From a virus, in IMG/VR virus record IMGVR_UViG_3300044953_000236, positions 1 through 23,782 of that record: DNA of 23,782 nt; one strand, written 5' to 3'. A program made the translations under genes and the position numbers. This document shows, one piece after another, positions 1 to 13,542 of the stretch. The first letter of the stretch is position 1. Every line of letters starts with the position of its first letter. The notes beneath the pieces were generated by a model. That model saw nothing but the letters and a program-made list of their open reading frames with translations. It searched no databases and was not told the origin of the DNA.

Positions 1-520
1 AACCAGTTTGTGGTGTACGTGTCTCCAGTATTTCCGTTACCGATCTGATACCGTCTTTTAATTTGGTTACTACATCCCCTGCAATCTGTTTAACACTACC
101 AATAATATCAGTACCCCCGGTGCTGGAGGGGGGTTGCGGTGCGCCCGCGCTAGTAGATGTACCACCCGTTGGTATAAGTTTGTTTGCTATGTCGGTTATG
201 TTATCACTTTCAAGGAATTTTTTTATCGATTCAATACCACCAGCAGTAGTACCACCTGTAATACCTTGTATTGTATACAATAAAGAACTAATAGCTGAAT
301 TGGTTAATAGCTCATATTCTTTCAATACACAGTATGGTGTTTTAGATTTCAAGTAATCGGTCATGTTACTACCTGTGAATCTCATATCATTAATGACGTC
401 TATAATACCAGCATTTGTGTTCGGAGTTGCAACGTATACATCACCTTGCAAACCAACAGGATTTGGAGCTATCTTGACTGTGCGTTCGTCAGATTTTTTT
501 AAATTAAAAATTGTAGGCAT
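1..520 (-). CDS. Partial structural-type protein, cut by left edge
   Basis: This open frame starts with ATG at 520-518 and runs off the left edge after 173 codons, so the C-terminus is missing. The product begins MPTIFNLKKSDERTVK. About residues 120-135 form a low-complexity Gly/Ser/Thr/Pro stretch (around GAPQPPSSTGG), encoded by unusually GC-rich DNA near 110-165. A Lys/Val-rich, probably helical stretch (IIGSVKQIAGDVVTKLKDG) follows. I recognise no family. It is the last minus-strand gene visible, 28 nt downstream of the tape-measure-like gene. It is therefore most likely a tail or baseplate component, but that rests on position only. An ACTAAATA sequence (527-534 on the minus strand) precedes the start and there is no Shine-Dalgarno. 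Confidence 0.75.
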   Translation of the reverse strand, partial: MPTIFNLKKSDERTVKIAPNPVGLQGDVYVATPNTNAGIIDVINDMRFTGSNMTDYLKSKTPYCVLKEYELLTNSAISSLLYTIQGITGGTTAGGIESIKKFLESDNITDIANKLIPTGGTSTSAGAPQPPSSTGGTDIIGSVKQIAGDVVTKLKDGIRSVTEILETRTPQTG

Positions 521-548
521 TTGAAATATTTAGTTATTGTACTGTTTG

Positions 549-2144
549 TTATGTGTAGTAAGCAGAGGCTCTAAAAGCCTGTCTTGCATCTGCAAAGCTG
601 TCCGGTTTACCGAGTGTAGCGCTAGGCGCTACACTACCTCCACCACCACCTACCTTTAAATTACTTAACAATCCACTATGAGCTTGTAATTCAGCTAGCT
701 GTTGTTTTTGAATCGACAACTGCTCAGTCAAAATAGCATTTGTTTTGGTCATCTCTGGACTGAATGCGTTCACACTCATCACAACCTTACCTAAGTTCGT
801 AGCAAGCAAGGCGAGCTTTGCAAAACTCACTTGGTTGATAGAATCACCAATATCCCGAACACTCTTACTAACCGTTGAAAGGCTTTCTGCTACTTTTACA
901 CTGACATCTTCTAACTTGCCAGTATCAATACTCATAAAATCAGTTAGGAACTTAATATGTTCTGTCGGTATGGTTGTGGTTGCACCAGCTATAGTTTTAA
1001 TAGCCCCACCTATATCTTTTATTGCATCGGGTATAAGAAATAACCCAATACCTTTAGCAATGCTCAGATTTGCAATTAAGTTGCGTAATAATCCATTAAT
1101 GTTCGACCCAACTGCAGGTAAGTTAGATGTATCAGGTATACCCGAAATAGTCTTGAATAATACTACAAGACCACCACAGAGCACGAGTAGCATAGGTGCC
1201 ATTAGAAGTAACCCTGCTCCTTCTGCAAGATCCAATTCACCAACCAGATTAGATAAAAACTGACTAATGTTTGTACCAACTGTGGGTAGTCCTTCTAAGT
1301 CTAACTCACTAAGCTTGCTGAGGACAAAGCCAAGAATTCCTAACGTAGCTGCAATACCGACAATTACTAACAGACCAAGACCCGCAAGCCCTGCTACTAC
1401 AGGGACACCCAATCCAATTACAACACCCAATATAACACCTATTATCAACCCAGCTTCACCTAAAGTACCCCATGGTATAGAGCCGAGTTGCGTCATAGCA
1501 CTAGCTAGTTCTACCAACCCTAATGAGAAAATTATTAGAGCACCACCTAGTCCTGCTATCAGAACTACACCCATCGCCGCATTCCACATGAACGCATGTA
1601 TTACTGCTTCAACTGTAGCAAGGCCTGCTAGCACCGCTGGTGAAATTGGAGCTAAAGCAGCTAAACCAAGAACTATAAGACCTATAGGTATTGCAGCTAA
1701 CCCTAGAGCACCCCACGTAACAAGTGATACCATCGCACCCATACTGCTTAAGCTTGTTAATGTTTTGATAATAGTGTTTATTCCATCTGTAACTGTGATA
1801 GCATATTTAACATCCTGATCCATCATCGTTAGATCGAGTAAAAACTCTTCTAGGTACTCAGCAGCAACAGACAACATCTGCCAATCTAAATCTTTGAACG
1901 CTAGTAAGCCTGGTACGGATAGTCCGAGGTTTGTCGAAAGCTCTAATATTTGTTCACTGTCCACCCCCAGGATACCAAACGGGTTTGAACCTAAACCTGT
2001 AGATCCTGCAGAATCTGTAGATTTTATTACACGTGGATCACTCTTGCTACCAGCTGGTGGTGTGGGCACACCGAGTCGTTCTGTTAATTTTGTGAGAACG
2101 TCAATTAATTTAAGTACAGCTATTGTTTCCAAGTTACTATCCAT
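549..2144 (-). CDS. Tape-measure-like hydrophobic tail protein
   Basis: I chose ATG at 2144 (531 aa, MDSNLETIAVLKL); a TTG three codons upstream would give 534 aa. AAGG lies directly next to this ATG, too close to be a normal ribosome-binding site. The product has a polar N-terminus (1-130), long Gly/Ala/Leu/Ile/Val-rich hydrophobic segments at roughly 135-220, 228-280 and 310-335, and then a helical Ser/Thr/Lys region (380-500). A short glycine linker and a polar tail (SFADARQAFRASAYYT) end it. Hydrophobic middle segments and long helices are typical of phage tape-measure proteins, and T4 gp29 is of similar size (about 590 aa). It directly follows two gp26/gp51-like genes, and T4 also has 26 and 51 close to 29. 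Role inferred: setting tail length, and possibly membrane passage of DNA. A membrane-active structural protein is the alternative. Confidence 0.55.
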   Translation of the reverse strand: MDSNLETIAVLKLIDVLTKLTERLGVPTPPAGSKSDPRVIKSTDSAGSTGLGSNPFGILGVDSEQILELSTNLGLSVPGLLAFKDLDWQMLSVAAEYLEEFLLDLTMMDQDVKYAITVTDGINTIIKTLTSLSSMGAMVSLVTWGALGLAAIPIGLIVLGLAALAPISPAVLAGLATVEAVIHAFMWNAAMGVVLIAGLGGALIIFSLGLVELASAMTQLGSIPWGTLGEAGLIIGVILGVVIGLGVPVVAGLAGLGLLVIVGIAATLGILGFVLSKLSELDLEGLPTVGTNISQFLSNLVGELDLAEGAGLLLMAPMLLVLCGGLVVLFKTISGIPDTSNLPAVGSNINGLLRNLIANLSIAKGIGLFLIPDAIKDIGGAIKTIAGATTTIPTEHIKFLTDFMSIDTGKLEDVSVKVAESLSTVSKSVRDIGDSINQVSFAKLALLATNLGKVVMSVNAFSPEMTKTNAILTEQLSIQKQQLAELQAHSGLLSNLKVGGGGGSVAPSATLGKPDSFADARQAFRASAYYT

Positions 2145-2154
2145 CCTTATCAAT

Positions 2155-2162
2155 TATTTATG
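2155..2162 (-). promoter_or_regulatory. CATAAATA late-promoter-like box
   Basis: On the minus strand CATAAATA ends 10 nt before the ATG at 2144. It matches the NATAAATA form of T4-type late promoters. If it is used, the leader would be only a few nucleotides long. Confidence 0.35.
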
Positions 2163-2206
2163 ATGAGGTGGCTGTGAACCTATATACTCTTCAGCTAGAT
2201 ACCAAA

Positions 2207-2944
2207 TCAACTAGCAGTCAAAAACAGTGTATTGAGCTGTACTACAGCGTTATCATTGAATGTAATGAGCTTGTTTTCAATTTCACGAACACTTGTCATG
2301 AAATCAATGATTTGCTGGTTTAACTTCATCGGTAAACTTTCAACAATCTCTTTCTTTTCTGTTATAGATATATTATCGAAGGTAACAACAATATCTTGAT
2401 AACTTATTGTGGTGATGAACTTTGCAATTTCATACACATACATAGTTGTCAGCGATTCTTTCACCTTATCATCTCCTAATTTTGCCGTTTCAGATATCGT
2501 TTTGACTAGGAAATTGTTATCTTGTTTAAGTGTTGGTAACTCTAAAGTTACTTTGAACCCATTATAATTGATCTCTTTCTTAGTTGGTATAACTGGTAAT
2601 GTGTTTGATTTAGGTAAATCACCGATATTATACTTTTTGCTATTGATTGTAACACTATTACCCATCGCTTGCTGTCTTAATGCTAGCAGAATAGGATACT
2701 TATCGGTTGTGAGGAAATTAACTGTTTTATCAACACAGTTTTCCATGATTATTGTATTCAGTTCCTTTAAGATGCTGATTGCACCTGAACCACCATCGAT
2801 TGAATGCCTCAACAACATCTTTTGCTGCTTTACATTGATCGGATAGAAGCTAATTGCTTTACCGATAGATGGGATTTCAACTGAAACCACATCTTGTTGT
2901 CTTGCTTCGTTTAGCTTTTCTAGAAAGTTAGTAGTGTTTGACAT
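2207..2944 (-). CDS. T4 gp26/gp51-like baseplate hub assembly protein (paralog 2)
   Basis: A 245-aa soluble protein starting MSNTTNFLEKLNEARQ, with no signal peptide or membrane segment. Its layout is that of the T4_baseplate family (gp26/gp51): an N-terminal strand pair (VEIPSIGKAISFYPINVKQ), helices with an LxxLRxxA-type core (ILLALRQQAMG), a central beta strand region (NYNGFKVTLELPTL), and a C-terminal helix bundle ending in KEIVESLPMKLNQQIIDF. The last part aligns with the next gene upstream (KQKIYELLPSKFIGELQRF), so the two are paralogs. In T4, gp26 and gp51 act in baseplate-hub assembly and have been proposed to chaperone the tape measure; this gene sits just before the tape-measure-like gene. 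ATG at 2944 lies 6 nt after the upstream stop. Family call moderate, exact role inferred. Confidence 0.6.
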   Translation of the reverse strand: MSNTTNFLEKLNEARQQDVVSVEIPSIGKAISFYPINVKQQKMLLRHSIDGGSGAISILKELNTIIMENCVDKTVNFLTTDKYPILLALRQQAMGNSVTINSKKYNIGDLPKSNTLPVIPTKKEINYNGFKVTLELPTLKQDNNFLVKTISETAKLGDDKVKESLTTMYVYEIAKFITTISYQDIVVTFDNISITEKKEIVESLPMKLNQQIIDFMTSVREIENKLITFNDNAVVQLNTLFLTAS

Positions 2945-2950
2945 TTTTAG

Positions 2951-3781
2951 TTATTTATGTTTTGGGTTTTGCTTTTTCAACTCTTCGTTTTGCTTCTTAA
3001 CTTCATCAACATAGAAGTTAAACATGATTTTACAATCGTTAATATTGAGTTTAAGGAAATCACTAAAACTACCACCAACTTTATTGACGAACTGATACAT
3101 AAACTCTAAGAAAGAGGTAATATCTTGTGAATATAACTGTTTTATAAAATGGCAAGGCTGGTTTGATAAGAAATTGATATTAACTTCATCGATGTTGAAT
3201 GTTGTGTTTTCTTCAAACACAACTAAGCTACCTAGAGCTGTCATGAGATTAGTATAAAACCGTTGCAACTCACCAATAAACTTAGATGGTAATAGTTCAT
3301 AGATCTTTTGCTTTTCTTCTTCGGTGATAGCATCAAAATCAACCTTTATACCATCATATGTGAACGAACGTACTAAGCTAAAATATAGCTCGTCTATGGT
3401 TTTAAAATATAATTGAGTGGGTATACCAAGCTCGATAGTAAACCTACCCATATCAACAGTTTCATTTGGTGGTGGTGTTACAGATTCGAATTTTTCTAAT
3501 ATTAGATTCAATGATAGACTTATCTTATTTGTAAATGAATTTTTCAGACCGATTGTTATTTCTTCACCAAGTGAAATTATTCGTAAAAATAATAGAACAT
3601 AAAATTTATCGACTATAGACAATGGTGGTATGCGGTTAAAAATAATACTATTAATACATCGCTCAAACCCCTCGATATCATCAGCTACACAAAACTTTAT
3701 CAGAGTGTATATGTCTTGGTTGGTTATCTCAGGTACTCTTACCTTGTTACCAGATGGTAATATCAGTGGGAAATCAAACAT
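2951..3781 (-). CDS. T4 gp26/gp51-like baseplate hub assembly protein (paralog 1)
   Basis: A 276-aa soluble protein starting MFDFPLILPSGNKVRVPEIT. It has the same plan as its downstream neighbour: an N-terminal strand pair and helix (EITNQDIYTLIKFC), a helical core (KFYVLLFLRIISLGEEI), a central MGRFTIELGIPT strand region, and the C-terminal signature ITEEEKQKIYELLPSKFIGELQRF split over residues ~155-180. It carries about 80 extra residues at the C-terminus (a helical region with MFNFYVDEV), ending in a Lys-rich tail (KKQNEELKKQNPKHK). Two adjacent genes of this family match the T4 pair 26 and 51. Expected role: assembly of the baseplate hub, perhaps binding the tape measure. An ATG start at 3781 is used and there is no Shine-Dalgarno. 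Which of the two corresponds to gp26 and which to gp51 cannot be told. Confidence 0.6.
   Translation of the reverse strand: MFDFPLILPSGNKVRVPEITNQDIYTLIKFCVADDIEGFERCINSIIFNRIPPLSIVDKFYVLLFLRIISLGEEITIGLKNSFTNKISLSLNLILEKFESVTPPPNETVDMGRFTIELGIPTQLYFKTIDELYFSLVRSFTYDGIKVDFDAITEEEKQKIYELLPSKFIGELQRFYTNLMTALGSLVVFEENTTFNIDEVNINFLSNQPCHFIKQLYSQDITSFLEFMYQFVNKVGGSFSDFLKLNINDCKIMFNFYVDEVKKQNEELKKQNPKHK
2952..2959 (-). promoter_or_regulatory. CATAAATA late-promoter-like box overlapping a stop codon
   Basis: CATAAATA on the minus strand contains the TAA stop of the upstream gene (2951-2953 region) and ends 7 nt before the ATG at 2944. Confidence 0.35.
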
Positions 3782-3790
3782 GTTTGACTA

Positions 3791-3798
3791 TATTTACA
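3791..3798 (-). promoter_or_regulatory. TGTAAATA late-promoter-like box
   Basis: TGTAAATA on the minus strand, 9 nt before the ATG at 3781. It differs from TATAAATA at the second base. A 15-nt palindrome (3802-3816) lies just upstream of it. Confidence 0.3.
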
Positions 3799-3801
3799 CG
3801 C

Positions 3802-3816
3802 ATATCACAGTGATAT
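3802..3816. repeat. Perfect 7-bp inverted repeat, operator-like
   Basis: ATATCAC-A-GTGATAT: two perfect 7-bp arms around one base, in the only noncoding gap of its size in this part of the minus-strand block (3782-3935). It sits directly upstream of the late-promoter-like box of the gp26/gp51-like gene. It could be a protein-binding site; the arms could also form a weak hairpin. No T-run follows on either strand, so it is not a terminator. Confidence 0.35.
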
Positions 3817-3935
3817 CCAGATTACAAGGCTTGCTCTAACTGTTATCGAACCAAGGGTTGGGTTACCCTTTTAGCTGGAGAATCGATGACTGGTAAGTCT
3901 CTTTTCGTGCAAAAGATTCTTGCTCGAGCTCAACG

Positions 3936-4667
3936 CTAATTTTTAATGATAAAATGTGCGGTTGGGAGCTTCCCACCAGCACCACCAGGGGGCACCCCAC
4001 CAGTACCACCAGGGGGCCTCCCACCCTGAATATAGTAACTTTTGTATGTAAATGTGCACGGGTGTACAATTGCTGCATTGTCAGTACTTTCGTAGTTTAG
4101 AGTATCACCAGTCACTCCTATTGGAGCCACACCTTCAAATACCACCCTCTTACGTATTGCCCAATTATCTTCATCATATCTGGTGTACATGTTAGCTACT
4201 AAATTAGTCTTGATAAATGTTTCACCATCCTCTATTAATCCTTTATGTGCTACAGCTATAACCCATGGTCTTAACATGTAATCTATTATATCTTCATTTG
4301 TCTCTAAGAAATCGATTTGAATTGAGTTATATGACTCTCGTTGTTTGGTGTAGTACCCACCAATTAAACCACCCATATTACTATTGTCTGTATATGCTTG
4401 ACTTACAGAATCGGTTGGAAACGATATTTTCTGTGCTAATAATGTTGGTATGGTGGAATTACCAAATATTGTATCACTTATTTTAAAATCTACAGGAAAC
4501 TTACCAACACTTGAATTGGTGCGCTCAGTGTTACCAAGTATTACATTAACACTTCCCATAACTAGCGGTAAATTATCAAACGATAGCGTCCATAAATTAC
4601 GCAGTGGAATGCTTTGATTCCATTTACCGGAGATGTAGTTAAGAAACTGTAAGGTTGCGTCTGGCAC
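3936..4667 (-). CDS. Tube-fold baseplate/tail-tube-type protein (gp48/gp54-like) with Gly/Pro tail
   Basis: 243 aa with a GTG start at 4667 (MPDATLQFLNYISGKW); no in-frame ATG precedes it. The body resembles tail-tube-fold proteins such as T4 gp19, gp48 and gp54. It has a strand-rich N-terminus (PLRNLWTLSFDNLPL), the segment KISFPTDSVSQAY, the strand-turn-helix YNSIQIDFLETNEDIIDYML leading to an aromatic RPWVIAVAHKG, and a final beta region (RKRVVFEGVAPIGVTGD, then FTYKSYY). T4 gp54 shows the same order at the top of the baseplate, where the tube begins. Position next to gp19 and the gp26/gp51-like pair supports a baseplate or tube-initiator role. The C-terminus is odd: a 24-bp DNA repeat encodes PPGGTGGV and PPGGAGGK. 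Exact equivalence to gp48 or gp54 is not established. Confidence 0.55.
   Translation of the reverse strand: MPDATLQFLNYISGKWNQSIPLRNLWTLSFDNLPLVMGSVNVILGNTERTNSSVGKFPVDFKISDTIFGNSTIPTLLAQKISFPTDSVSQAYTDNSNMGGLIGGYYTKQRESYNSIQIDFLETNEDIIDYMLRPWVIAVAHKGLIEDGETFIKTNLVANMYTRYDEDNWAIRKRVVFEGVAPIGVTGDTLNYESTDNAAIVHPCTFTYKSYYIQGGRPPGGTGGVPPGGAGGKLPTAHFIIKN
3972..4025. repeat. 24-bp tandem repeat in the 3' end of a tube-fold gene
   Basis: Two full copies, at 3972-3995 and 3996-4019, begin CCCACCAG(C/T)ACCACCAG and are followed by the start of a third. On the minus strand they encode the 8-residue units PPGGTGGV and PPGGAGGK. Runs of five Cs on the minus strand and the high GC content contrast with the AT-rich surroundings. 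Such a tract is expected to vary in copy number or slip. Confidence 0.75.
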
Positions 4668-4687
4668 CTAATTATTTAATGGACCTG

Positions 4688-5272
4688 TTAATTCTCTCCA
4701 AGAGGTTGTTGAAGAGCTTGACCAAGCGATCCAATAGTATAGTAGTGATATGACATAGTGGCTTTGAGTTCCACTAATTCACCTTTACCTTCAGCGATTT
4801 TATATTCAATACCAGCAATCTTTCTCAACTGCGCGCCGATAAGATTGTAGTAATTACCAATAGGTGATAGATCTTTATTAAGCTGAGACAGAACGATAAT
4901 ATTTGCAACACCTGGCATTTGATAGTTACCTGTGCCGGTACCATCATTGAAGATTTCTCTAGATGCTACTTCAAATTTTGTTCTTAGATCTTCGTCACTA
5001 GCATCAAGATAGAATGTAATATCGTAAGAGTCAGAACCATCGTATGTTGCAGCACCAGGGAGGTTAAATTTCAACCCCATATAGCTTGCATTAATATTTT
5101 CAATTGTTCTACCAGGAATGCTAGCTGCTTTAGCATATACTAGGTCTTCATCTGTAAGATCTGGTAGCCCTACCCCCTGCATCCTAACAACTCTAAAGAG
5201 GAAATCTCTAGAGAAGTCCTTATTAGCAGCTTGGGTGTAAAACGATTGGATATTTTGATTAATTGATGCCAT
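4688..5272 (-). CDS. gp19: Tail tube protein (T4 gp19-like)
   Basis: A 194-aa protein (T4 gp19 is about 163 aa) with the layout of the T4-type tube protein. The N-terminal helix (NIQSFYTQAANKDFSRDFLF) leads into a first strand (RVVRMQGVG). The family segment follows (AKAASIPGRTIENI, NASYMGLKFNLPG), in which a conserved Pro-Gly-x-Thr turn links two strands. YDITFYLDASDEDLRTKFE is the strand/helix contacting neighbouring subunits, and a final beta region is seen in ELVELKATMSYHYYTIGSL. Hexamer rings of this protein stack to make the inner tail tube inside the sheath. In T4, 18 and 19 are adjacent; here a homing-endonuclease locus separates them. ATG at 5272, with a perfect TATAAATA box 21 nt upstream and no Shine-Dalgarno. 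Confidence 0.85.
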   Translation of the reverse strand: MASINQNIQSFYTQAANKDFSRDFLFRVVRMQGVGLPDLTDEDLVYAKAASIPGRTIENINASYMGLKFNLPGAATYDGSDSYDITFYLDASDEDLRTKFEVASREIFNDGTGTGNYQMPGVANIIVLSQLNKDLSPIGNYYNLIGAQLRKIAGIEYKIAEGKGELVELKATMSYHYYTIGSLGQALQQPLGEN

Positions 5273-5293
5273 ATAAATTGGTTGTTACAAATA

Positions 5294-5301
5294 TATTTAT
5301 A
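5294..5301 (-). promoter_or_regulatory. TATAAATA late promoter for the tail tube gene
   Basis: Perfect T4 late-promoter -10 box on the minus strand in a 129-bp gap, 21 nt before the ATG of the tube gene. This is the best-placed promoter candidate in the window, because it leaves room for a short leader. Confidence 0.6.
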
Positions 5302-5401
5302 GTTTGTAGATGTCTTTATAGTAGTTGCTTCAGGAAAATCAATATATTATTGATATGAAACCACTGATCGTTTGCTTAGCTATTAACATTAGTCTTAAGC
5401 A

Positions 5402-6193
5402 TTATCGATACACCCGTTCATATAAAATATGACCACAATCATAGATTTGCGAATAACCATTACGTTTCATATTTTCAATCTCGGTTAGATTGCTATCGTA
5501 ATTGGGTAGTTTTTTAATCAATGTATGTTTTGCAAAGTTAAACCGATGTAGTAATTTAACTGTGTTAGCTGCGCTAGGTTTGAAATAATAATAATTAGGT
5601 GATGTTTGTTTAGTTTTCTCAAAACCTAGAGTTGTATATACATTACCGGTTGAATATCTTAAATTTGCATATGATATTATCTTATGCGGTGTGTGGGTCT
5701 GTACAAAAAACTTTAGTAGTTTGCTTAACCCACCAACAACGGTAACGTTGAGCTTTGAACAAAATCTTATTAACTCAATTACCTGTTCTGATATATCAGC
5801 TCTTGTTATTTTTCGTACACCCAGAGTAGCTATGGCTACTAATTCATTATCATGAAACAATCCATATGCATACTTACACCGACTATCACCTTGTATGTGA
5901 TTAGCTTGTAAAAACTGTCGTTTGGTAACCTCGTCAACGTGACGAATATTACACTTTCTTGCATATATCTTCGTGGGTATATTACCAGTTTTGCTTCTAA
6001 TTATTGATTTAATGAGTTCCGAGTTAGATGCCCATTCATTTTCAAATATATGGATCACCGTATATCCGAGTCTATTGAAGTATCTAGTTTTGTTGATGCG
6101 GTGGTTACTATCTTTTAGATCAGATGAATGGTAATATAACCCATTATATTCAATAACTAGCTTATATTTTTCGCTTAAAATATCTACTTGCAT
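5402..6193 (-). CDS. Vsr/EDxHD-like homing endonuclease, probably truncated by an upstream stop
   Basis: ATG at 6193 gives 263 aa, but the same frame stays open 44 codons further up to a TAA at 6326-6328. Those codons (containing YEYSSAGQKQLFDWFVGEI) belong to the nuclease fold, so this start loses its first helix. Nuclease core: VDIL (Asp), KLVIEYNGLYYHSS (Glu, then the His of YYH), NKTRYFNRLGYTVIHIFENE. This resembles the Vsr-type PD-(D/E)XK fold of phage homing endonucleases. The C-terminal half (~90-263) has features common in this family: YARKCNIRHV, FLQANHIQG, YGLFHDNELVAIATLG, a GNAT-like SYANLRYSTGNVYTTLGFE, and a final GYSQIYDCGHILYERV. Expected role: a selfish DNA endonuclease that spreads its own gene. 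It lies between sheath and tube genes on the same strand. As it stands it is probably inactive. Confidence 0.65.
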   Translation of the reverse strand: MQVDILSEKYKLVIEYNGLYYHSSDLKDSNHRINKTRYFNRLGYTVIHIFENEWASNSELIKSIIRSKTGNIPTKIYARKCNIRHVDEVTKRQFLQANHIQGDSRCKYAYGLFHDNELVAIATLGVRKITRADISEQVIELIRFCSKLNVTVVGGLSKLLKFFVQTHTPHKIISYANLRYSTGNVYTTLGFEKTKQTSPNYYYFKPSAANTVKLLHRFNFAKHTLIKKLPNYDSNLTEIENMKRNGYSQIYDCGHILYERVYR

Positions 6194-7092
6194 CCTAACA
6201 CCACCATCATATATAAACTTATCAGAAACAGCATCGGTATCAATTTCACCAACAAACCAATCGAAGAGCTGTTTTTGACCTGCAGATGAATATTCATATC
6301 TATGAATGTACCCTACATCAAAAGATTAAAAGTACATCTTACCCTTATCTGTATCAGGTTTGCCGTTCAATAAAAAATAACACACTTCAGAAAATTTAGT
6401 AATATCTAATTTAGATCCGTAGTGTGTGATACTCTTTGCAAGAACTGGGTTTCTCTTGATGATACTCTGCTCTGACCTACAAATCGTAGCTGCTACTTTA
6501 TACCCTTTACTAAAACTAACAAACTTACCTTCAATAGGAATAGATATATTGTTGTGTATAATATGATATAACTTCTGAGATAATGTGTCACCAGGTGCTA
6601 ACAGTATTGCTTTTGTGATTGACTTCTGAGCTACTGGTATATGGGTGAAAAAGCACCTAGATTACCCTGTGGGTTACTGCGATTATATGTATTATAATAC
6701 TCTATAACGTCACTATATGCTGCGGGTTGTATTGTTGTATCGTTTTCGATGTTTTGCATCACTTCACTACATCTATAGTAGTTTGTACGATTCTTGTGTG
6801 CGTTAATTCGCACATTACGTGGCATCACACCACGCTTACCATATACTCTGTATTGGAACTCATTGGTGATAAAATTCAGGTGTTTGTGTGATGGGACACA
6901 CTGGTATTTTGATAAGATCGGTTAGCCAATGAAAATACATCTGAGGTGTACATGTATATCGAATATCATGGTTTTCACAAAAAGATCGTGCAGCTTCATA
7001 TATGTGGTTATGATATCTCTTTATCATCACATTATAGTGTTTGGGTATTTCACCTTTAATTGTGTAAAAGTATCTTTAAGTTGTGTTGTCAT
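6194..7092 (-). pseudogene. Degenerate 5' part of the homing-endonuclease locus
   Basis: This is the stretch between the sheath gene and the endonuclease frame. On the minus strand I can read consecutive coding-like pieces in changing frames: MTTQLKDTFTQLK (from ATG 7092), then NHIYEAARSFCENHDI in another frame, then NEFQYRVYGKRGVMPRNV to NPQGNLGAF (ending in TAG at 6631), and then a frame from about 6661 to the TAA at 6326-6328. The last piece is in frame with the endonuclease. It contains DTLSQKLYHIIHNN (6589-6548) and KFVSFSKGY, which parallel DITQRLYHIVNN and KFQNFSTGY in the terminase-associated endonuclease. A GCTTTTTC homopolymer at 6647-6654 sits where one frame change occurs. I read this as the decayed front of one homing-endonuclease gene. 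The earliest pieces may come from another, unrecognised gene. Sequencing errors are possible, though every neighbour is intact. Confidence 0.55.
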
Positions 7093-7141
7093 ATATCTGA
7101 ACCCTCAATTAGCTGTAGAAGTAATTATGTTTGATTACAAT

Positions 7142-7177
7142 AAAAAACGGAGATAAAATTAATTATCTCCGTTTTTT
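7142..7177. terminator. Bidirectional Rho-independent terminator after the tail sheath gene
   Basis: Perfect 15-bp stem (left arm 7142-7156, right arm 7163-7177) with a 6-nt AATTAA loop. The core is CGGAGATAA/TTATCTCCG, flanked by A6 on one side and T6 on the other, so it can act on either strand. It starts 6 nt beyond the sheath stop codon and would limit read-through from the abundantly needed sheath gene into the endonuclease locus. Confidence 0.85.
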
Positions 7178-7182
7178 ATTAA

Positions 7183-9546
7183 TTATGCTTTTGCGATCAA
7201 CTCTTCGAAGTTTGCACCAGTCTTAGTAGCATAGAAGTTCACCAAAATGAACTCTGCAGCGCGAACAGGCTTCAAATATATATCGACAATAAGCTCGTTC
7301 TCGTCGATCGTATTAGGTGTATTATTACGATCATCGCACACGACTAAGAAGTCATACACACCTTGCGCAGATCTGATCTGTTCAAAGAATGGATTGAGTA
7401 GACCCAATACTCTGTTGCGGGTGAACTCAGTGTTAGGTTCGAACACAAAGTACTTCATCGAAGACTTCACTGACTTCTCGTAGTAAAGGAATCCACGACG
7501 TACGTTAATTCTATCAAACGCACTTGGTTTGGTCTGTAGTGTTTTCTGACCGAAAATCACATTACCTTGACCTGGGAACTGTGCGATTGGGTTCATTCTC
7601 GCTTTGTAAAGATCATCGCGCTGACGTTGGTTTGGTGTGAATGCAATGTCAACAATACCTTTAACACCACCACGATTAAAACCAGCTGGTGCAATCCACG
7701 GACCAGCCATTTCATCTGTAGCTACCATGCGAGCTGCAACGAAACCTGAAGGTGGCATCCACACTTTAGTATTTGTTACATTATCAATAACAGCTACCCA
7801 GTTAGCATATGTAGCTGCATATGATGTATTAATATTGCTGTATAGATTTCTTAGAGCCCAATAGATATCACGGGAGAACAAGAATGACTCGTTCTGTGAT
7901 GTCTTTGTATTAGCGCCTTGTATAAACAAGTGTCTAATTGGATCTGCAATAAAGAACGTATCACCGCGACCACCTTGCTGGAATGTTGTTGCAATTCCTA
8001 AGAACTCTTCAGCAATCGCATTGTAGTATGTTTGAATGTCGGTACCTGTTACATTCTTTGTTCTCTGAATGCTAGTTAATGCTGCATTCCATGTTTGATT
8101 GTTGGATGCGTCGTCATATGAAGCTTCACCGGTAATCTGTGTAAATGCATAGATTGTACCAAGACCACCTTCGAGTAACATATCAACGTCATAAAGTTCA
8201 TCGTCTTTAATGATTGATAAAGATCTGTTAAGCTTGTCAACAAGGTTACCAATAACTTTATCGTTCTGTGGACCAGTCGGCGAATACGAACCAAGAGGTA
8301 ATAACGAGTCAACATAGCCAAGTGAGCTAATTGTTGAATTGATAGTAGCTTGAGGAATGCTATAACCAACAGATGCTGATAATTCGGTATAGTTACTAAT
8401 CATGTTATGATTAATCGTTCTTACCTTCTTAAGTGTCTTAACTGTGCTGTTTGAGTCAAACGATGTACCTTTACCAATGCTATCAAGAGCTTGGTTATTG
8501 ATATATGGGTTAACAATCAACGAAATATTTGCACTTTTATCTGCAATAATGTTTTGCAACGAATATGTTACAGGAGCACCACCATTTGTGGGAGCGAACT
8601 GTCTAAACGGATCTGTAAATGAACCGGTATACAATTCTTGAGGAATTAAAATTAACTTATTCGGATCATCAAGGAATACACTGTTGTTGAGCTTGAATAC
8701 ACCAACGTTAAGTACATCGTCATACTGATTGTCATCACCAATGATATAACCTTTTGATGCTGTTTCCATCGTGTATGACAGTGAGTCGGATGAATTACCA
8801 GCAGCACTTGTAAGACTGAATGTCAATACGCTTGATGGTATGTTAGTGTAATTACTAAGACCACCAACAGCTGTTTGCGAAACTGTCAACGCTGTTTGAA
8901 TCTTATTGAAGCTCGAACCAATGTTATCTGCATCAACGTTATCAACCATGCTGATATAATAACCTTTAAAGCCTTGATCAATTGTTGTCTGGCCTTTGTT
9001 TATAACAATCGCACCTGCTTTGCTGAAGTCAGAAACACTATTAATTGCAGAAATAGGAGCTGCTATAGAACTCCAAGTAAATCCAGTACCATCTATAAGT
9101 GACTGATATTGAGCTTTTGTGAGTGAGAACTGCTTTGGCTTACCTAAGAAATATACACCGGAGAGACCATCGAGATCGTTGGTCATTACATTGGTGTTGG
9201 CATTATAAAACTTAGCTGGAAAAACAAGAGCTGTATAAAAGCTACCAAACCCCGTACCGTTATTAGAACCGTAAGGTAAACGGTTAATGGTTACACGAGC
9301 ACTTCTATTTTGGAAGACTGCTTTTGTGGTGTGGTATAGGTAACGTTCTGCGGCATTTGTCGGTTTACCGTAGACAAGCTCGAAATCGTTCATACTAGAG
9401 ATTTCTGTAACCTCATCTGTTGGTCCCTGCTTTGCAAAGCCGGAAATATAAATGCTTGTACCCTGTGGTGGTGATAGTCTCTCTGATAAATCAAATTCTC
9501 TAATTTCAACACCTGGAGATTGGATAGTTCTTCTTATTGTTGCCAT
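7183..9546 (-). CDS. gp18: Contractile tail sheath protein (T4 gp18-like)
   Basis: 787 aa, somewhat longer than T4 gp18 (659). The N-terminus has the sheath hallmark SPGVEIREFDLSERL, followed by GTSIYISGFAKQGPTDEV and a segment (FELVYGKPTNAAERYLYHTT) typical of the sheath start. The middle (about 100-480) is a variable, surface-exposed beta-rich region that accounts for the extra length. The C-terminal part is the conserved core: GFVAARMVATDEMAGPWIAPAG, INVRRGFLYYEKSVKSS, LLNPFFEQIRSAQGVYDF, and the closing strand region DIYLKPVRAAEFILVNF. Six-fold rings of this protein surround the tube and shorten on contraction, driving the tube through the host envelope. ATG at 9546 is preceded by AATAAATA and no Shine-Dalgarno; a strong terminator follows. 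Confidence 0.92.
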   Translation of the reverse strand: MATIRRTIQSPGVEIREFDLSERLSPPQGTSIYISGFAKQGPTDEVTEISSMNDFELVYGKPTNAAERYLYHTTKAVFQNRSARVTINRLPYGSNNGTGFGSFYTALVFPAKFYNANTNVMTNDLDGLSGVYFLGKPKQFSLTKAQYQSLIDGTGFTWSSIAAPISAINSVSDFSKAGAIVINKGQTTIDQGFKGYYISMVDNVDADNIGSSFNKIQTALTVSQTAVGGLSNYTNIPSSVLTFSLTSAAGNSSDSLSYTMETASKGYIIGDDNQYDDVLNVGVFKLNNSVFLDDPNKLILIPQELYTGSFTDPFRQFAPTNGGAPVTYSLQNIIADKSANISLIVNPYINNQALDSIGKGTSFDSNSTVKTLKKVRTINHNMISNYTELSASVGYSIPQATINSTISSLGYVDSLLPLGSYSPTGPQNDKVIGNLVDKLNRSLSIIKDDELYDVDMLLEGGLGTIYAFTQITGEASYDDASNNQTWNAALTSIQRTKNVTGTDIQTYYNAIAEEFLGIATTFQQGGRGDTFFIADPIRHLFIQGANTKTSQNESFLFSRDIYWALRNLYSNINTSYAATYANWVAVIDNVTNTKVWMPPSGFVAARMVATDEMAGPWIAPAGFNRGGVKGIVDIAFTPNQRQRDDLYKARMNPIAQFPGQGNVIFGQKTLQTKPSAFDRINVRRGFLYYEKSVKSSMKYFVFEPNTEFTRNRVLGLLNPFFEQIRSAQGVYDFLVVCDDRNNTPNTIDENELIVDIYLKPVRAAEFILVNFYATKTGANFEELIAKA

Positions 9547-9551
9547 AACAA

Positions 9552-9559
9552 TATTTATT
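9552..9559 (-). promoter_or_regulatory. AATAAATA late-promoter-like box before the sheath gene
   Basis: AATAAATA on the minus strand in the 56-bp gap between the sheath gene and its upstream neighbour, 5 nt before the ATG at 9546. Confidence 0.4.
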
Positions 9560-9602
9560 ATCTATCAGCTATGTTTTTTTCCTACAAGTTGATTTTAATT
9601 TG

Positions 9603-10169
9603 TCATACGTTAATCAAATTCATTCGCAATTGTGAGAATGCGAAGGAGAAACTGCATTCTAATTCATCACCAACACGGTAGTCATAGTCAAGCTGACTTA
9701 ATGACACTGGAAATGCTTTGGTATATGTGAATTTTGCAACTTTATTGTCGAATTCATCTAGTGCGGTGATTGTAAATTCTGTCTGATAATCTTTGAACCT
9801 GTCTTTATTAGACAGGTTGCGCTGGTCGTATATACCAACCTGCTCATCTTGCAATAAATTCAACCACTGATATATTACCCAGTAGTTATTATACCTGTTA
9901 TCAACAGTAAATTTAACATCAACCGGTGGGAATGCGTTGATTGAGTGAGCTGAATTATGTAATGTGTTACCAGAATATCTTATTTCAACTGTAGGTTTTT
10001 CAATTTTAGGTACTATAACACCATATACAGAAAATTGCATAGAGTTCTGACTAACATGCATATTATCTCTTGTCGTGGACTGCATTTTCCTTAGCGCATT
10101 TGGTAAAGAAAAGGTAAGTAGAAACTTGTCTTTACGTGATTTGTTAAGTACTGTTTGAATATTACTCAT
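9603..10169 (-). CDS. Tube-fold virion protein encoded between terminase and sheath
   Basis: I chose ATG at 10169 (188 aa, MSNIQTVLNKSRKDKF); a TTG eight codons upstream would lengthen it to 196 aa and the terminase overlap to 32 nt. With the ATG the overlap is 8 nt, which suggests translational coupling. The protein has the gp19-type layout: RKDKFLLTFSLP as first strand, KIEKPTVEIRYSGNTLH as the strand-turn-strand, a strand-helix with aromatic residues (NYWVIYQWLNLLQDEQ), and a closing TKAFPVSLSQLDYDY...LECSFSFAFSQL that strongly recalls the FP-x-S-ending strands of tube proteins. T4 itself has nothing between 17 and 18. It may be a second tube subunit, a tube terminator or a baseplate tube ring. 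Family fairly sure, exact role open. Confidence 0.6.
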   Translation of the reverse strand: MSNIQTVLNKSRKDKFLLTFSLPNALRKMQSTTRDNMHVSQNSMQFSVYGVIVPKIEKPTVEIRYSGNTLHNSAHSINAFPPVDVKFTVDNRYNNYWVIYQWLNLLQDEQVGIYDQRNLSNKDRFKDYQTEFTITALDEFDNKVAKFTYTKAFPVSLSQLDYDYRVGDELECSFSFAFSQLRMNLINV

Positions 10170-12900
10170 ATATTGACCAACCGTCTTGTTCAAGCATATT
10201 TATATCACTTCCAAGTTGTTCATCCAAACCAAACACACATGGTAATGTAAAAATATCGTTTTTAAACATTTCATCATCACTATAAATCGATTTAGGATTT
10301 ACCACCAGACCCATACCAAAGTCAGATACTACTAATCTTTTAGGTTTACCATTATCATCTGTCTCAGCGATTTCAAAATACTGTTGGACAATATCATCAT
10401 ACAATGCCATAAGAGCCCAAACAGTGGACATTACTTTATCATCATGGCAACTATCTTTTGCTGCCCATGTACCGTTTGGATATCTAGTAAAGTCTCTAAA
10501 TTCTCTTATTGTGTCAACGTCATTAAACCTAACACATTTAAGTTCAGATACCCAATATCTCATATTAGTAACTGCTTTATTTTTTGTATTTGAGTGGCAA
10601 ATTACTCCATTTTGTTGCTTACGATTTGCTAACTGACCACCCCAATTTACAAGTTTTTCATAAACAAATCTATTCCTCAAATTATCTGCAACCTGCGCAC
10701 CAACACCATTTCTCTCAACAAGTGCTAGTGGTTTACCCCACTGGGTTAAAATTTCATTAACTTTGGTTGTGAAATCATAAGGAGATATCTTATTAGATGA
10801 ATATATAGCTACTTGCTCTATATTAGATAAATCTGTGAGATCGTAGATGTTAATTATAGAATAATCTTTTCCTATACCTTCAGCTGTATCAACACCTGCT
10901 GCATAAATTCTACCATCTTTAGGTTCATCAAATATTCTATATGCACCATCTTCGTATATACCTATAGGTTGTTTTACACTCTTCATTAACTTGTCAAAAT
11001 ATTCATGATCGATAGCACCATCACCATGCTGGAGGAACACATTTTCAAACTCCTGAAGCCAAGCTTCATACGAACCTAATATTTCTATTGTCTTTCGTTT
11101 GAACTCTTCAGTACGACCGGGCGGTTCATCCCACTTGATCTCATCATATCCAAACCCATTATCACCACGTATAGCCCCCATCCACAATTTATGAAACAGA
11201 TTACCCACACCATTTGGTGTAGATGCAATTAGGATTTTAGATTTTTCAGCAGACGAGATAGTGGGATATACTGATCTCCAAAATTCGGTGGCCAAATTCT
11301 CGTCCAAGAACGCAAGTTCGTCAATGAATAAACAATTGTGATTCAATACATTACCTGCAACATAATACTCACCATCACAATCTACTAGATCATATACAAT
11401 ATGTTTACCTTCTAAGGGTGTAACTGTTATGATTTCATCATAGCCATTAATTGATTTAATTTTCATACCTGGTAGTATATCTGACACATATAACCGATTA
11501 TCATTTTCACCCAAAAATGAATGATCATATGTACATTTTATAGTAATATTGCTCGTTAGTTTGATTTCAACGACATCTTTAAGCTGTTTCCGAACGCCTT
11601 TGAATCGCTCAATACCACTCAGCCCAACACTACTCAAATCTCCAACTTTATCATTGAAGTTAATAAAATTGATTTTATCACCAAGATATTTTTTACATGT
11701 CGCAACAAACGCATCATACTTTCTTTTCTTTGACTTGCGCTTAATTTGTAGATTATCAAACACAACAACCACCGAATAACCGCTATTGACTAGGTCTGAA
11801 TATTTTTGAATATCTTTCTTAAGTTGACTCAGATACAGGTGATGTGATTCATTAACTTCCACCACTATCGAGTTATCTATAAAGACGCCATCCACGAAGT
11901 ATGATTTGATTTGTTGTGTCCTACAAAGTTTACCTAGCAGACCATGAGATATGCGTTCGATTGTATCTAAAACCCGATTTTTATTATTACCAATATTGGT
12001 TTGGTAGCTACTAGAATTTATCTTATTATTCTTAATTCGTTTTGCTATATTATCTCTAAACTTATTATTACAGACTGAACTACAAGTTGCAGCATACCCG
12101 AGTGTTGATTTGAATCGATGTATTTCAGACTTACATACAGGGCATAATGGGTATACATCAACACCATATATGATGTTATAAATATTTTGTATAATATCAT
12201 CAGTTTTTATAATACCACGGTATGTGTTTTTAATAAACTCAGTAATCGACGATATGCGTTTATATTTCTGTGTTAGTTTAAATCGTTTCCGGTCTATATC
12301 GTCAATCAACATCCAGTTCCGCAGAAACTCAATTTTTTGATCGTATGTGAAGTTATCGAACTTATACTCTATATTACATCTTTCACTAATGCGATCTTGT
12401 ACCAGTGAATGGGTTGGTGGTAGTAGTGTGTTATTTTTGGATATTAATGGTGTTGTGATATTAGCTTTAAGATATCTCAATCTCATCGTTAAATCGCAAT
12501 TGTAATCATCTAAAAATGATGTATTATTGATTAATACAGATTTAAGTCGTTTATTGGTGATAATATTTTTTATTTTTATTTCAGGGTTTTTGATATAGCT
12601 GAGTATATCCCTATCATCGAACTTTTCCCACGTTAGTGGTGTCCAATACTTTGTTTTATGATACCCGGTGCTAAAATTTTGAAACTTCTTAGGCCAGTTT
12701 GTGGTAGTTACATCAACCACAGTAGTATTGTTTACGATATGATACAGGCGCTGAGTGATGTCTCGTTGTATGAACTTATCTAGATATGATGTTCTTCTGT
12801 TTAGTTCAGATTGTAATTCTTGCGAGTCCTTTATAGCTCGTATAGTGGAATTTAAATTTAAGTTTTTGCTAGACAGCAATTGATCGAGATCTCTATTCAT
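10162..12900 (-). CDS. terL: Terminase large subunit C-half, preceded by homing endonuclease and C-intein
   Basis: 912 aa from ATG 12900. Residues 1-~405: homing endonuclease. ~408-522: C-intein. 523-912: terminase. The terminase part resumes with Cys523 in CLFIDELAFLDE (Walker B, catalytic Asp-Glu). Next come the coupling motif IASTPNG and the RNase H-like nuclease, whose three acidic sites are GVDTAEGIGKDYS, LVERNGVG and CHDDKVMS, matching LDCSEG, IELNSTG and YHDDLVMS of T4 gp17. All nuclease and Walker B residues are present. It lacks the P-loop, which the upstream gene encodes, so it can work only after joining to that half. A perfect TATAAATACTATT stands just before the ATG. Role: the ATP-driven DNA packaging motor and headful nuclease at the portal. 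I infer trans-splicing. Confidence 0.88.
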   Translation of the reverse strand: MNRDLDQLLSSKNLNLNSTIRAIKDSQELQSELNRRTSYLDKFIQRDITQRLYHIVNNTTVVDVTTTNWPKKFQNFSTGYHKTKYWTPLTWEKFDDRDILSYIKNPEIKIKNIITNKRLKSVLINNTSFLDDYNCDLTMRLRYLKANITTPLISKNNTLLPPTHSLVQDRISERCNIEYKFDNFTYDQKIEFLRNWMLIDDIDRKRFKLTQKYKRISSITEFIKNTYRGIIKTDDIIQNIYNIIYGVDVYPLCPVCKSEIHRFKSTLGYAATCSSVCNNKFRDNIAKRIKNNKINSSSYQTNIGNNKNRVLDTIERISHGLLGKLCRTQQIKSYFVDGVFIDNSIVVEVNESHHLYLSQLKKDIQKYSDLVNSGYSVVVVFDNLQIKRKSKKRKYDAFVATCKKYLGDKINFINFNDKVGDLSSVGLSGIERFKGVRKQLKDVVEIKLTSNITIKCTYDHSFLGENDNRLYVSDILPGMKIKSINGYDEIITVTPLEGKHIVYDLVDCDGEYYVAGNVLNHNCLFIDELAFLDENLATEFWRSVYPTISSAEKSKILIASTPNGVGNLFHKLWMGAIRGDNGFGYDEIKWDEPPGRTEEFKRKTIEILGSYEAWLQEFENVFLQHGDGAIDHEYFDKLMKSVKQPIGIYEDGAYRIFDEPKDGRIYAAGVDTAEGIGKDYSIINIYDLTDLSNIEQVAIYSSNKISPYDFTTKVNEILTQWGKPLALVERNGVGAQVADNLRNRFVYEKLVNWGGQLANRKQQNGVICHSNTKNKAVTNMRYWVSELKCVRFNDVDTIREFRDFTRYPNGTWAAKDSCHDDKVMSTVWALMALYDDIVQQYFEIAETDDNGKPKRLVVSDFGMGLVVNPKSIYSDDEMFKNDIFTLPCVFGLDEQLGSDINMLEQDGWSIYE
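11335..12900 (-). mobile_element. Endonuclease-C-intein segment of a split TerL intein
   Basis: Residues 1-522 of the downstream terminase gene. The first ~405 residues hold a DNA-binding-like front (DITQRLYHIVNN, KFQNFSTGY), a four-Cys knuckle (CPVC at 253-256 and CSSVC at 273-277), and a Vsr/EDxHD-like nuclease (VDGVFIDNSIVVEVNESHH with Asp, Glu and His; then KKDIQKYSDLVNSGYSVVVV). The C-intein follows: INFINFNDKVG at its start, block B with TxxH in ITIKCTYDHSFL (His460), DILPGMKIKSING, block F HIVYDLVDCDGEYYVAGN, and block G VLNHN, ending in His521-Asn522 with Cys as the +1 residue. All residues needed for the C-terminal cleavage step are present. There is no Met between the nuclease and block B, so a separate C-intein start is unlikely. 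Confidence 0.8.
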
Positions 12901-12910
12901 ATCATAATAG

Positions 12911-12918
12911 TATTTATA
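12911..12918 (-). promoter_or_regulatory. TATAAATA late promoter inside the split terminase
   Basis: Perfect TATAAATACTATT on the minus strand, within the 24-nt gap between the two terminase genes and 10 nt before the ATG at 12900. Initiation at the T4 distance would leave almost no leader, so the box could instead be an AT-rich translation-start element. Confidence 0.5.
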
Positions 12919-12924
12919 TTCTAG

Positions 12925-13023
12925 TTACGATATAGTACGACCACGTGAAAGAAGTTCTATAGGTGTGTTGTATATTTGCTTCGTACTATCTTGAATGCAG
13001 ACAAGTGTATCACCAGTAACGCA
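12925..13023 (-). mobile_element. N-intein (block A) of the split TerL intein
   Basis: The last 32 codons of the upstream terminase gene plus its stop. The piece begins with Cys174 in CVTGDTLVCIQD, a clear intein block A (Cys nucleophile, then G-D-T), continues YNTPIELLSRG, and stops at TAA (12925-12927). Block B is absent here and lies in the next gene. A split straight after block A with so short an N-intein is the atypical class; AceL-TerL has an N-piece of about 25 residues. The extein residues before it are GMSIS. Confidence 0.85.
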
Positions 13024-13542
13024 GCTGATTGACATACCACGAGCTGCACTACCTGTTGTAGTCGAAATGCTGATTTCAGACCCATTAGCTAACTTCATTG
13101 AAGTCTGTGCGTATATCTCAACACCTGGTTTGAGCCATGGTGGTAATTCTTCATATGCTAATCTAATACGCTTAAAAATTTCAGTCGCTGTTGCTTCCTT
13201 GTTTGCTACAATAACAACACGCTTGTCATTTTCAAAACACACATGCCATAAAGCATAAATGGTATACATTGTCGTTTTAGATGCTTGTCTAGGTGATAAC
13301 AAGATAAAAAATCTATTATCACGCATCTTTCGTAGGATTCGACGCTGATATGGTCTTAGAGGTATTTTCATTCTACCCTTATCTGGATGGATGATATAAA
13401 AATAATCAGCAAAGTGTAATATATTTTGAGTGCACTTTTTAATTTCCTTTACCATCGTTGGTGTATATTCAAATACTGCACCTGATGTTGGTAGACTTGG
13501 ATTATTTAAGTAAGTTTGTTTCTTTTTTGGGGACCCTGCCAT
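12925..13542 (-). CDS. terL: Terminase large subunit N-half (ATPase) ending in an N-intein
   Basis: 205 aa from ATG 13542. Residues 1-173 are the N-terminal part of a gp17-type terminase. IPLRPYQRRILRKMRDNRF is the adenine-binding/Q-motif region, LLSPRQASKTT (residues 81-91) the Walker A loop, and VVIVANKEATATEIFKRIRLAYEELP the following strand and helix. SGSEISISTTTG-type residues (LANGSEISISTTTG) and AARGMSIS lead up to the Walker B strand, where the intein cuts in. The P-loop has Ser in place of the usual Gly before Lys89 (SKT, not GKT). Residues 174-205 are the N-intein. Alone the product lacks Walker B and the nuclease. The start is only 17 nt from the divergent plus-strand ATG and no Shine-Dalgarno is seen. 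Confidence 0.9.
   Translation of the reverse strand: MAGSPKKKQTYLNNPSLPTSGAVFEYTPTMVKEIKKCTQNILHFADYFYIIHPDKGRMKIPLRPYQRRILRKMRDNRFFILLSPRQASKTTMYTIYALWHVCFENDKRVVIVANKEATATEIFKRIRLAYEELPPWLKPGVEIYAQTSMKLANGSEISISTTTGSAARGMSISCVTGDTLVCIQDSTKQIYNTPIELLSRGRTIS

What the first reader, a model, noticed from the sequence alone, without database searches (positions are those of the whole stretch)
10162..13542. Packaging terminase split in two genes by an atypical split intein
The N-half carries Walker A and ends in a 32-residue intein piece starting CVTGDTLV (block A). The C-half carries blocks B (TYDH), F and G (LNHN then Cys) and restarts the terminase at CLFIDELAF, the Walker B strand. Joining GMSIS to CLFIDELAF would rebuild a normal gp17. 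The cut directly after block A is the rare AceL-TerL-type split, described for phage terminases from aquatic metagenomes. Complete splicing residues on both sides argue that trans-splicing is maintained.
Basis: partly seen in the sequence, partly recalled or inferred. Interest (0 to 1): 0.9.

Follow-up and report, generated by a model that had tools for sequence, protein, structure and literature searches.

The report
Split terminase intein carrying a DNA-cutter
In an uncultured T4-like phage the DNA-packaging motor gene is cut in two by a self-splicing protein element that should rejoin the halves, and the second half carries, fused in front of the splicing part, an apparent DNA-cutting enzyme that would spread the element, at a place where such enzymes have been said not to occur.

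Summary
The N-half (12925-13542, minus strand) is gp17 residues 1-173 plus a 32-aa IntN. The C-half (10162-12900, minus strand) ends in IntC, Cys+1 and the rest of gp17. Close relatives (L001-L006) carry the same terminase unsplit and intein-free; their empty site, GMSIS|LLFIDELAF, lies exactly at the predicted junction, and the spliced product would have their length (563 aa). Both exteins are under purifying selection (dN/dS 0.06-0.13). Three diverged contigs (L014, L084, L093; 28-43% identity) have the same HEN-IntC-terminase fusion, and L007 has a homologous free-standing HEN in a split terminase intein at another site. The C-half has its own late-promoter-like signal. The terminase Walker B site is an intein hotspot with many layouts. 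What is new is the in-frame endonuclease at the N-terminal split site rather than the canonical site between blocks B and F, which published work calls the only site. Trans-splicing and DNA cleavage are inferred, not shown. Verdict: real; new variant of a known kind (fractured gene / atypical split intein).

The parts
13024..13542 (-). N-extein: gp17 residues 1-173 (ATPase N-part, Walker A RQASKTT)
   Evidence: phrog_5989 E 1.3e-47; intact homologs L001-L006; dN/dS 0.06-0.08
12928..13023 (-). IntN, 32 aa, block A C1-V-T-G-D-T
   Evidence: IntN HMM trained on other loci, E 4.4e-10
12925..12927 (-). TAA stop ending the N-half, in frame with the C-half
   Evidence: TAA is the commonest stop in the window, 12 of 18 genes
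12906..12918 (-). TATAAATACTATT, T4-type late promoter-like signal of the C-half
   Evidence: only 0-mismatch site in the window; TAAATA within 30 nt (mostly 11-17 nt) upstream of 12 of 19 starts, P about 2e-13; NATAAATA late promoter in cyanophages, PMC2984593
11680..12900 (-). Homing endonuclease part of the C-half, residues 1-407
   Evidence: PF04480 DUF559 E 1.2e-4, above its gathering score; homologs L014, L084, L093, L007
12061..12150 (-). Zinc-ribbon-like motif P-x-C-x2-C ... T-C-S-x2-C-N-N-K, residues 251-280
   Evidence: C253, C256, C273, C277 conserved in the fused HENs; C253, C256, C273 also in L007
11731..11988 (-). Nuclease core, residues 305-390 (D337-G, E348, E351, H354, K362-D363)
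   Evidence: residues invariant in five HENs; predicted fold matches I-Bth0305I 3r3p and Vsr 1cw0
11335..11646 (-). IntC, residues 419-522 (about 104 aa)
   Evidence: HMM E 4.7e-16; model aligns to gp41-1 Z 13.1 and Cat Z 12.9
11521..11532 (-). Block B TYDH, residues 457-460
   Evidence: T and H invariant among IntC sequences
11335..11400 (-). Blocks F and G, residues 501-522, ending NHN
   Evidence: D504, H521, N522 invariant; F-block His is Glu here
11332..11334 (-). Cys+1 (residue 523) in place of the Leu of intein-free alleles
10165..11334 (-). C-extein: gp17 Walker B strand, rest of ATPase and RNase H-like nuclease
   Evidence: PF17289 E 2e-5; gp17 3ezk E 9.8e-24; dN/dS 0.08-0.13
11335..13023 (-). 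The whole insertion (1689 bp) relative to the empty alleles
   Evidence: alignment with L001-L006

Best explanation
A mobile, naturally split intein with its homing endonuclease fused to the C-terminal half. Two late genes make precursors: gp17(1-173)-IntN, and HEN-IntC-gp17(174-563). IntN docks on IntC to complete the HINT fold; Cys1, Cys+1 and Asn522 then splice the exteins into a 563-aa gp17 with Cys at position 174 (inferred). The by-product is a 522-aa HEN-IntC protein with IntN bound. The EDxHD/Vsr-type nuclease is inferred to cut intein-free terL alleles of co-infecting phages, so that repair copies the 1.7 kb insertion into them. Shown by sequence: anatomy, exact empty site, selection on both halves, recurrence of the HEN-IntC fusion in three other contigs, C-half start signal. 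Inferred: splicing, cleavage, homing, timing.
For: Empty site in six relatives exactly at the junction. IntN and IntC HMMs trained without the window hit at 4e-10 and 5e-16. IntC predicted as HINT, matching atypical and phage split inteins. dN/dS 0.06-0.13 on both exteins. HEN-IntC-TerL fusion also in L014, L084, L093 at 28-43% identity; in L014 the two halves lie in different frames, so the break there is not one nonsense mutation. Homologous HEN free-standing between the halves of another split TerL intein, L007. Nuclease fold like I-Bth0305I and Vsr with invariant D/E/H/D residues. Late-promoter-like signal ahead of the C-half, with the same type of signal ahead of L014's C-half and L007's HEN. 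Terminase divergence is concentrated in about 230 codons around the insertion (about 75% nt identity to all relatives, then 93-98% to L001), as expected if flanks were co-converted with the element.
Against: No experimental splicing or cleavage data. Walker A glycine is Ser (RQASKTT); a Ser there also occurs in L036 and L049, which carry split inteins too. F-block His is Glu; the solved Cat IntC, an engineered consensus TerL intein, also has no His there. The AF2 read-through model did not place IntN confidently (pLDDT about 50). One contig; no close relative with the same insertion. N-half and C-half are in the same frame, so the window alone would also fit a contiguous intein with one stop.
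Confidence: 0.8

Rival explanations
1. A contiguous endonuclease-bearing intein recently broken by a single in-frame TAA; terminase is non-functional or the phage genome is decaying.
For: N-half stop and C-half ATG are in one frame, 8 codons apart; Walker A glycine is replaced.
Against: Both exteins under purifying selection; homologous fusion in L014 has the halves in different frames; own start signal before the C-half; neighbouring structural genes intact.
Confidence: 0.1
2. The TAA is read through at some rate (UAA-CUA context), giving a cis-splicing precursor of about 1126 residues.
For: Same frame across the stop; the 8 intervening codons are open.
Against: TAA ends 12 of 18 genes in the window; a start signal at the usual spacing follows; the different-frame case L014 cannot use it.
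Confidence: 0.05
3. The two halves act as separate subunits without splicing, as in endonuclease-split genes-in-pieces, and the intein pieces are relics.
For: An endonuclease-split phage ribonucleotide reductase that works as two chains is known (cited in PMC3322345 and PMC10448857).
Against: Key splicing residues C1, TxxH, HN and C+1 retained on both sides; the break lies in the Walker B strand of the ATPase, where unjoined chains are unlikely to work.
Confidence: 0.05

Closest known systems
AceL-TerL / GOS-TerL / Cat-TerL atypical split inteins
   Same: Phage terminase host gene, IntN of 25-37 aa, IntC of about 104-115 aa, Cys+1 (PMC11766414); IntC aligns to Cat 6dsl, Z 12.9, 22% identity
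   Different: Here IntC is preceded in the same chain by a 407-aa endonuclease; insertion at Walker B, whereas the AceL-like intein L007 sits at QEYE|CIFL (that AceL's own C-extein is CEFLG is from memory)
Fractured-gene arrangement with split inteins and intervening HEN gene (Dassa et al. 2009; AceL NrdHF, PMC7891396)
   Same: Essential gene split by a split intein with a homing endonuclease between the halves; Vsr/EDxHD-type nuclease as in I-Bth0305I
   Different: The HEN is fused to IntC instead of free-standing; the break is the atypical N-terminal one
I-Bth0305I (EDxHD/Vsr-like homing endonuclease)
   Same: Predicted nuclease fold (Foldseek prob 1.00; Z 7.4, 20% identity over 77 residues), D/E/H/D residues
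   Different: Own zinc-ribbon and helical N-terminal region; fused to an intein half
Classical endonuclease-bearing inteins (PI-SceI, PI-PfuI, TliVMA)
   Same: Endonuclease and HINT in one polypeptide
   Different: Their HEN sits at the C35 site between blocks B and F; here it precedes block B, ahead of about NpuDnaE residue 25

Membership tests
Atypically split intein (TerL type) | Short IntN with Cys/Ser1 and block A on one chain | tested here: met
   32 aa, CVTGDT; HMM E 4.4e-10
Atypically split intein (TerL type) | IntC with blocks B, F, G, HN and nucleophile at +1 on a second chain | tested here: met
   HMM E 4.7e-16, TxxH, D504, H521-N522, Cys523; F-block His absent
Atypically split intein (TerL type) | Exteins join to an intact host protein; empty alleles exist | tested here: met
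   L001-L006
Atypically split intein (TerL type) | Protein trans-splicing activity | not testable with these tools
   needs co-expression
Fractured gene (Dassa 2009) | Free-standing HEN gene between the two halves | tested here: not met
   HEN is fused in frame to IntC; L007 and PspYZU05 do meet it
EDxHD/Vsr-like homing endonuclease | Nuclease fold and conserved acidic/His residues | tested here: met
   residues invariant in five HENs; fold match 3r3p and 1cw0 at Z 7.4; residue-by-residue match to I-Bth0305I was not checked
EDxHD/Vsr-like homing endonuclease | Cleaves the intein-free allele | not testable with these tools
   needs in vitro digestion
T4 gp17 large terminase | ATPase with Walker A/B plus RNase H-like nuclease | tested here: inconclusive
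   gp17 3ezk E 9.8e-24 and PF17289, Walker B intact after joining; Walker A glycine replaced by Ser

The most novel reading that the evidence does not exclude
A natural intein architecture in which the homing endonuclease is inserted in frame at the N-terminal (atypical) split position, not at the C35 site, and the chain break just upstream of it is what makes that position tolerable: trans-splicing rebuilds the terminase and at the same time releases an active endonuclease-IntC enzyme.
Probability: 0.5. Interest if true: 0.75.

Novelty: new variant of a known kind. Interest (0 to 1): 0.6.

Why it matters
Beyer et al. [quoted passage not shown] The window and three relatives carry an in-frame endonuclease about one strand ahead of N35, with the chain broken beside it; related loci fuse a GIY-YIG endonuclease to the IntN side or nest an HNH gene out of frame at the same place. 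Why HENs sit where they do, and whether splitting is the price of the other site, can now be tested on short constructs. It also gives compact split inteins and an uncharacterised nuclease subfamily.

Tried and rejected
Close relatives of the 522-aa HEN-IntC: none by single-sequence scan of IMG/VR, by tblastn in GenBank phages or in GTDB genomes; homologs came only from a Walker B junction pattern and a HEN motif pattern. No Rfam match, so no known intron family explains the split. No near DNA match of window 1-12000 in GenBank phages. Joint AF2 fold of IntN with IntC: a read-through chain was used, but IntN stayed at low confidence, so docking is untested; a mixed IntN/IntC alignment failed. 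The Foldseek top hits to mitoribosome proteins have rmsd over 24 A and were disregarded. I first took the HEN position as exactly N35; structural alignment puts it ahead of NpuDnaE residue 25, about one strand earlier. Dassa et al. 2009 itself was not held and is cited through other papers. The literature searches covered open-licence PMC papers only, so novelty of the fusion is not proven.

Full report
What is there. On the minus strand the window carries two adjacent ORFs: 12925-13542 (205 aa) and 10162-12900 (912 aa). The first is the N-terminal part of a T4-type large terminase (phrog_5989, E 1.3e-47) followed by CVTGDTLVCIQDSTKQIYNTPIELLSRGRTIS. The second ends with a C-intein, Cys, and the rest of gp17 (PDB 3ezk E 9.8e-24). 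Six contigs in IMG/VR (L001-L006) carry the same terminase at 77-86% identity in one uninterrupted ORF (563 aa in three of them), with GMSIS (or GMAIS) LLFIDELAF at the place where the window has GMSIS-[1689 bp]-CLFIDELAF. The junction is thus fixed by comparison, not only by motif; the joined window protein would be 563 aa with Cys for Leu.

Is it an intein? Profiles built from other terminase loci only hit the window pieces at E 4.4e-10 (IntN) and 4.7e-16 (IntC), with the best unrelated window ORFs at 0.11 and 0.41. C1, the TxxH of block B, D of block F, HN and Cys+1 are present; the block F His is Glu, but the solved Cat IntC, an engineered consensus TerL intein, also lacks it. In an AF2 model IntC (model 470-573 = C-half 419-522) aligns to gp41-1 with Z 13.1, rmsd 1.8 over 102 residues, and to Cat with Z 12.9.

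Residues 1-407 of the C-half are an endonuclease. Pfam DUF559 hits at E 1.2e-4, above its gathering score; the predicted nuclease core (305-386) resembles I-Bth0305I (Foldseek prob 1.00, Z 7.4, 20% identity) and Vsr (Z 7.4). These Z values are only moderate on their own, but residues D337, E348, E351, H354 and D363 and three Cys of a zinc ribbon are invariant between the window, L014, L084, L093 and the free-standing endonuclease of L007. L014, L084 and L093 have the same HEN-IntC-terminase order, 28-43% identical to the window; L084 and L093 are truncated upstream. In L014 the N-half and C-half are in different frames, so there the break cannot be one nonsense mutation. In the window the halves are in one frame, separated by TAA and eight codons.

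Expression. Genes of this phage lack clear Shine-Dalgarno sequences but 12 of 19 have TAAATA within 30 nt upstream, mostly 11-17 nt (P about 2e-13 against AT-rich background). This resembles the T4/cyanophage late promoter TATAAATA/NATAAATA (PMC2984593). The only exact TATAAATACTATT in the window lies just upstream of the C-half ATG; the C-half of L014 and the endonuclease of L007 have TAAATA at similar spacing. The C-half therefore looks like a separately started late gene.

Is the terminase alive? dN/dS against L001, L003 and L004 is 0.06-0.07 for the N-extein and 0.08-0.13 for the C-extein (0.08 for the N-extein against L005, whose C-extein is saturated). The Walker A glycine is Ser (RQASKTT against RQSGKST); RQMSKTT and RQSSKSI occur in L036 and L049, themselves split-intein terminases. 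I treat this as a caveat, not as proof of decay. Divergence from the relatives is confined to about codons 60-290 around the insertion (about 75% nt) and then gives way to 93-98% identity with L001 over codons 300-480, which fits import of the element with its flanks, although L001 is itself mosaic against L004.

Context. A degenerate pattern for HN-C-xxx-DE-x-AF found 79 stretches (74 usable IntC, 43 clusters at 85%). They include contiguous mini-inteins, inteins split after block A with a free-standing HEN, inteins with a GIY-YIG domain in frame after IntN, and contiguous inteins with an HNH gene nested in another frame. Cultured phages PspYZU05 and CP21 have split terminases too.

Comparison with the known. 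The split type is that of AceL-TerL, GOS-TerL and Cat-TerL (PMC11766414). An endonuclease gene lying between halves is the fractured-gene arrangement (PMC7891396, citing Dassa 2009). The fusion of the endonuclease to IntC, ahead of block B, was not found in the papers searched, and runs against the statement that all intein endonucleases sit at C35 (PMC6801210). Hence: new variant of a known kind.

Limits. No wet evidence; one contig; no second isolate with this insertion; literature limited to open-licence papers. Endonuclease activity, splicing and homing are inferences from family knowledge.

Noticed in passing
L038 2190-2975, L046 1161-1898, L083 2368-3120, L060 848-1651, L013 6857-7606, L023 624-1361, L073 256-951 (coordinates on the coding strand of each locus): Contiguous terminase inteins whose block A to block B linker (about 230 aa) is read through a complete HNH homing endonuclease gene (HNH, NUMOD3, phrog_655) in another reading frame. 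The intein frame has 0 stops in 7 of 7 loci against 12-21 expected after synonymous shuffling, always with the same frame offset. Looks like a nested, overprinted endonuclease gene; deserves its own study.
   Followed up: partly
L021, L025, L045, L059, L061, L062: N-half of the split terminase continues in frame from IntN into a GIY-YIG endonuclease, the mirror image of the window's HEN-IntC fusion.
   Followed up: partly
L028 against L015/L053: Near-identical inteins with and without the nested endonuclease stretch between block A and block B, i.e. HEN-plus and HEN-minus alleles.
   Followed up: no
L007 3658-6611: Same terminase split at another site (QEYE|S......SHN|CIFL) with Ser1/Cys+1, a free-standing DUF559-like HEN and a separate C-half: AceL/GOS-like layout.
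   Followed up: yes
L014, L016, L012 (phage CP21): Two inteins only a few residues apart around Walker B (AAFIE|CVTGDTQ), in CP21 together with a further one at Walker A.
   Followed up: no
window 5402-6828, minus strand: Remnant of a homing endonuclease between tail sheath and a tail tube gene: only the C-terminal half of phrog_3339 (positions 282-533 of 536) is open, the upstream part is interrupted.
   Followed up: partly
window, 12 of 19 gene starts: TAAATA within 30 nt (mostly 11-17 nt) upstream of start codons with no clear Shine-Dalgarno sequence; late-promoter-like signals very close to the starts.
   Followed up: partly
L086 1252-1254 on the coding strand: Mini-intein with an in-frame TAG between block A and block B and no start nearby; perhaps a phage with recoded TAG, or a broken intein.
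   Followed up: no
L011 2405-2995 (phage phiM12): Extra terminase N-terminal gene (gp17.2) directly upstream of the full gp17.
   Followed up: no
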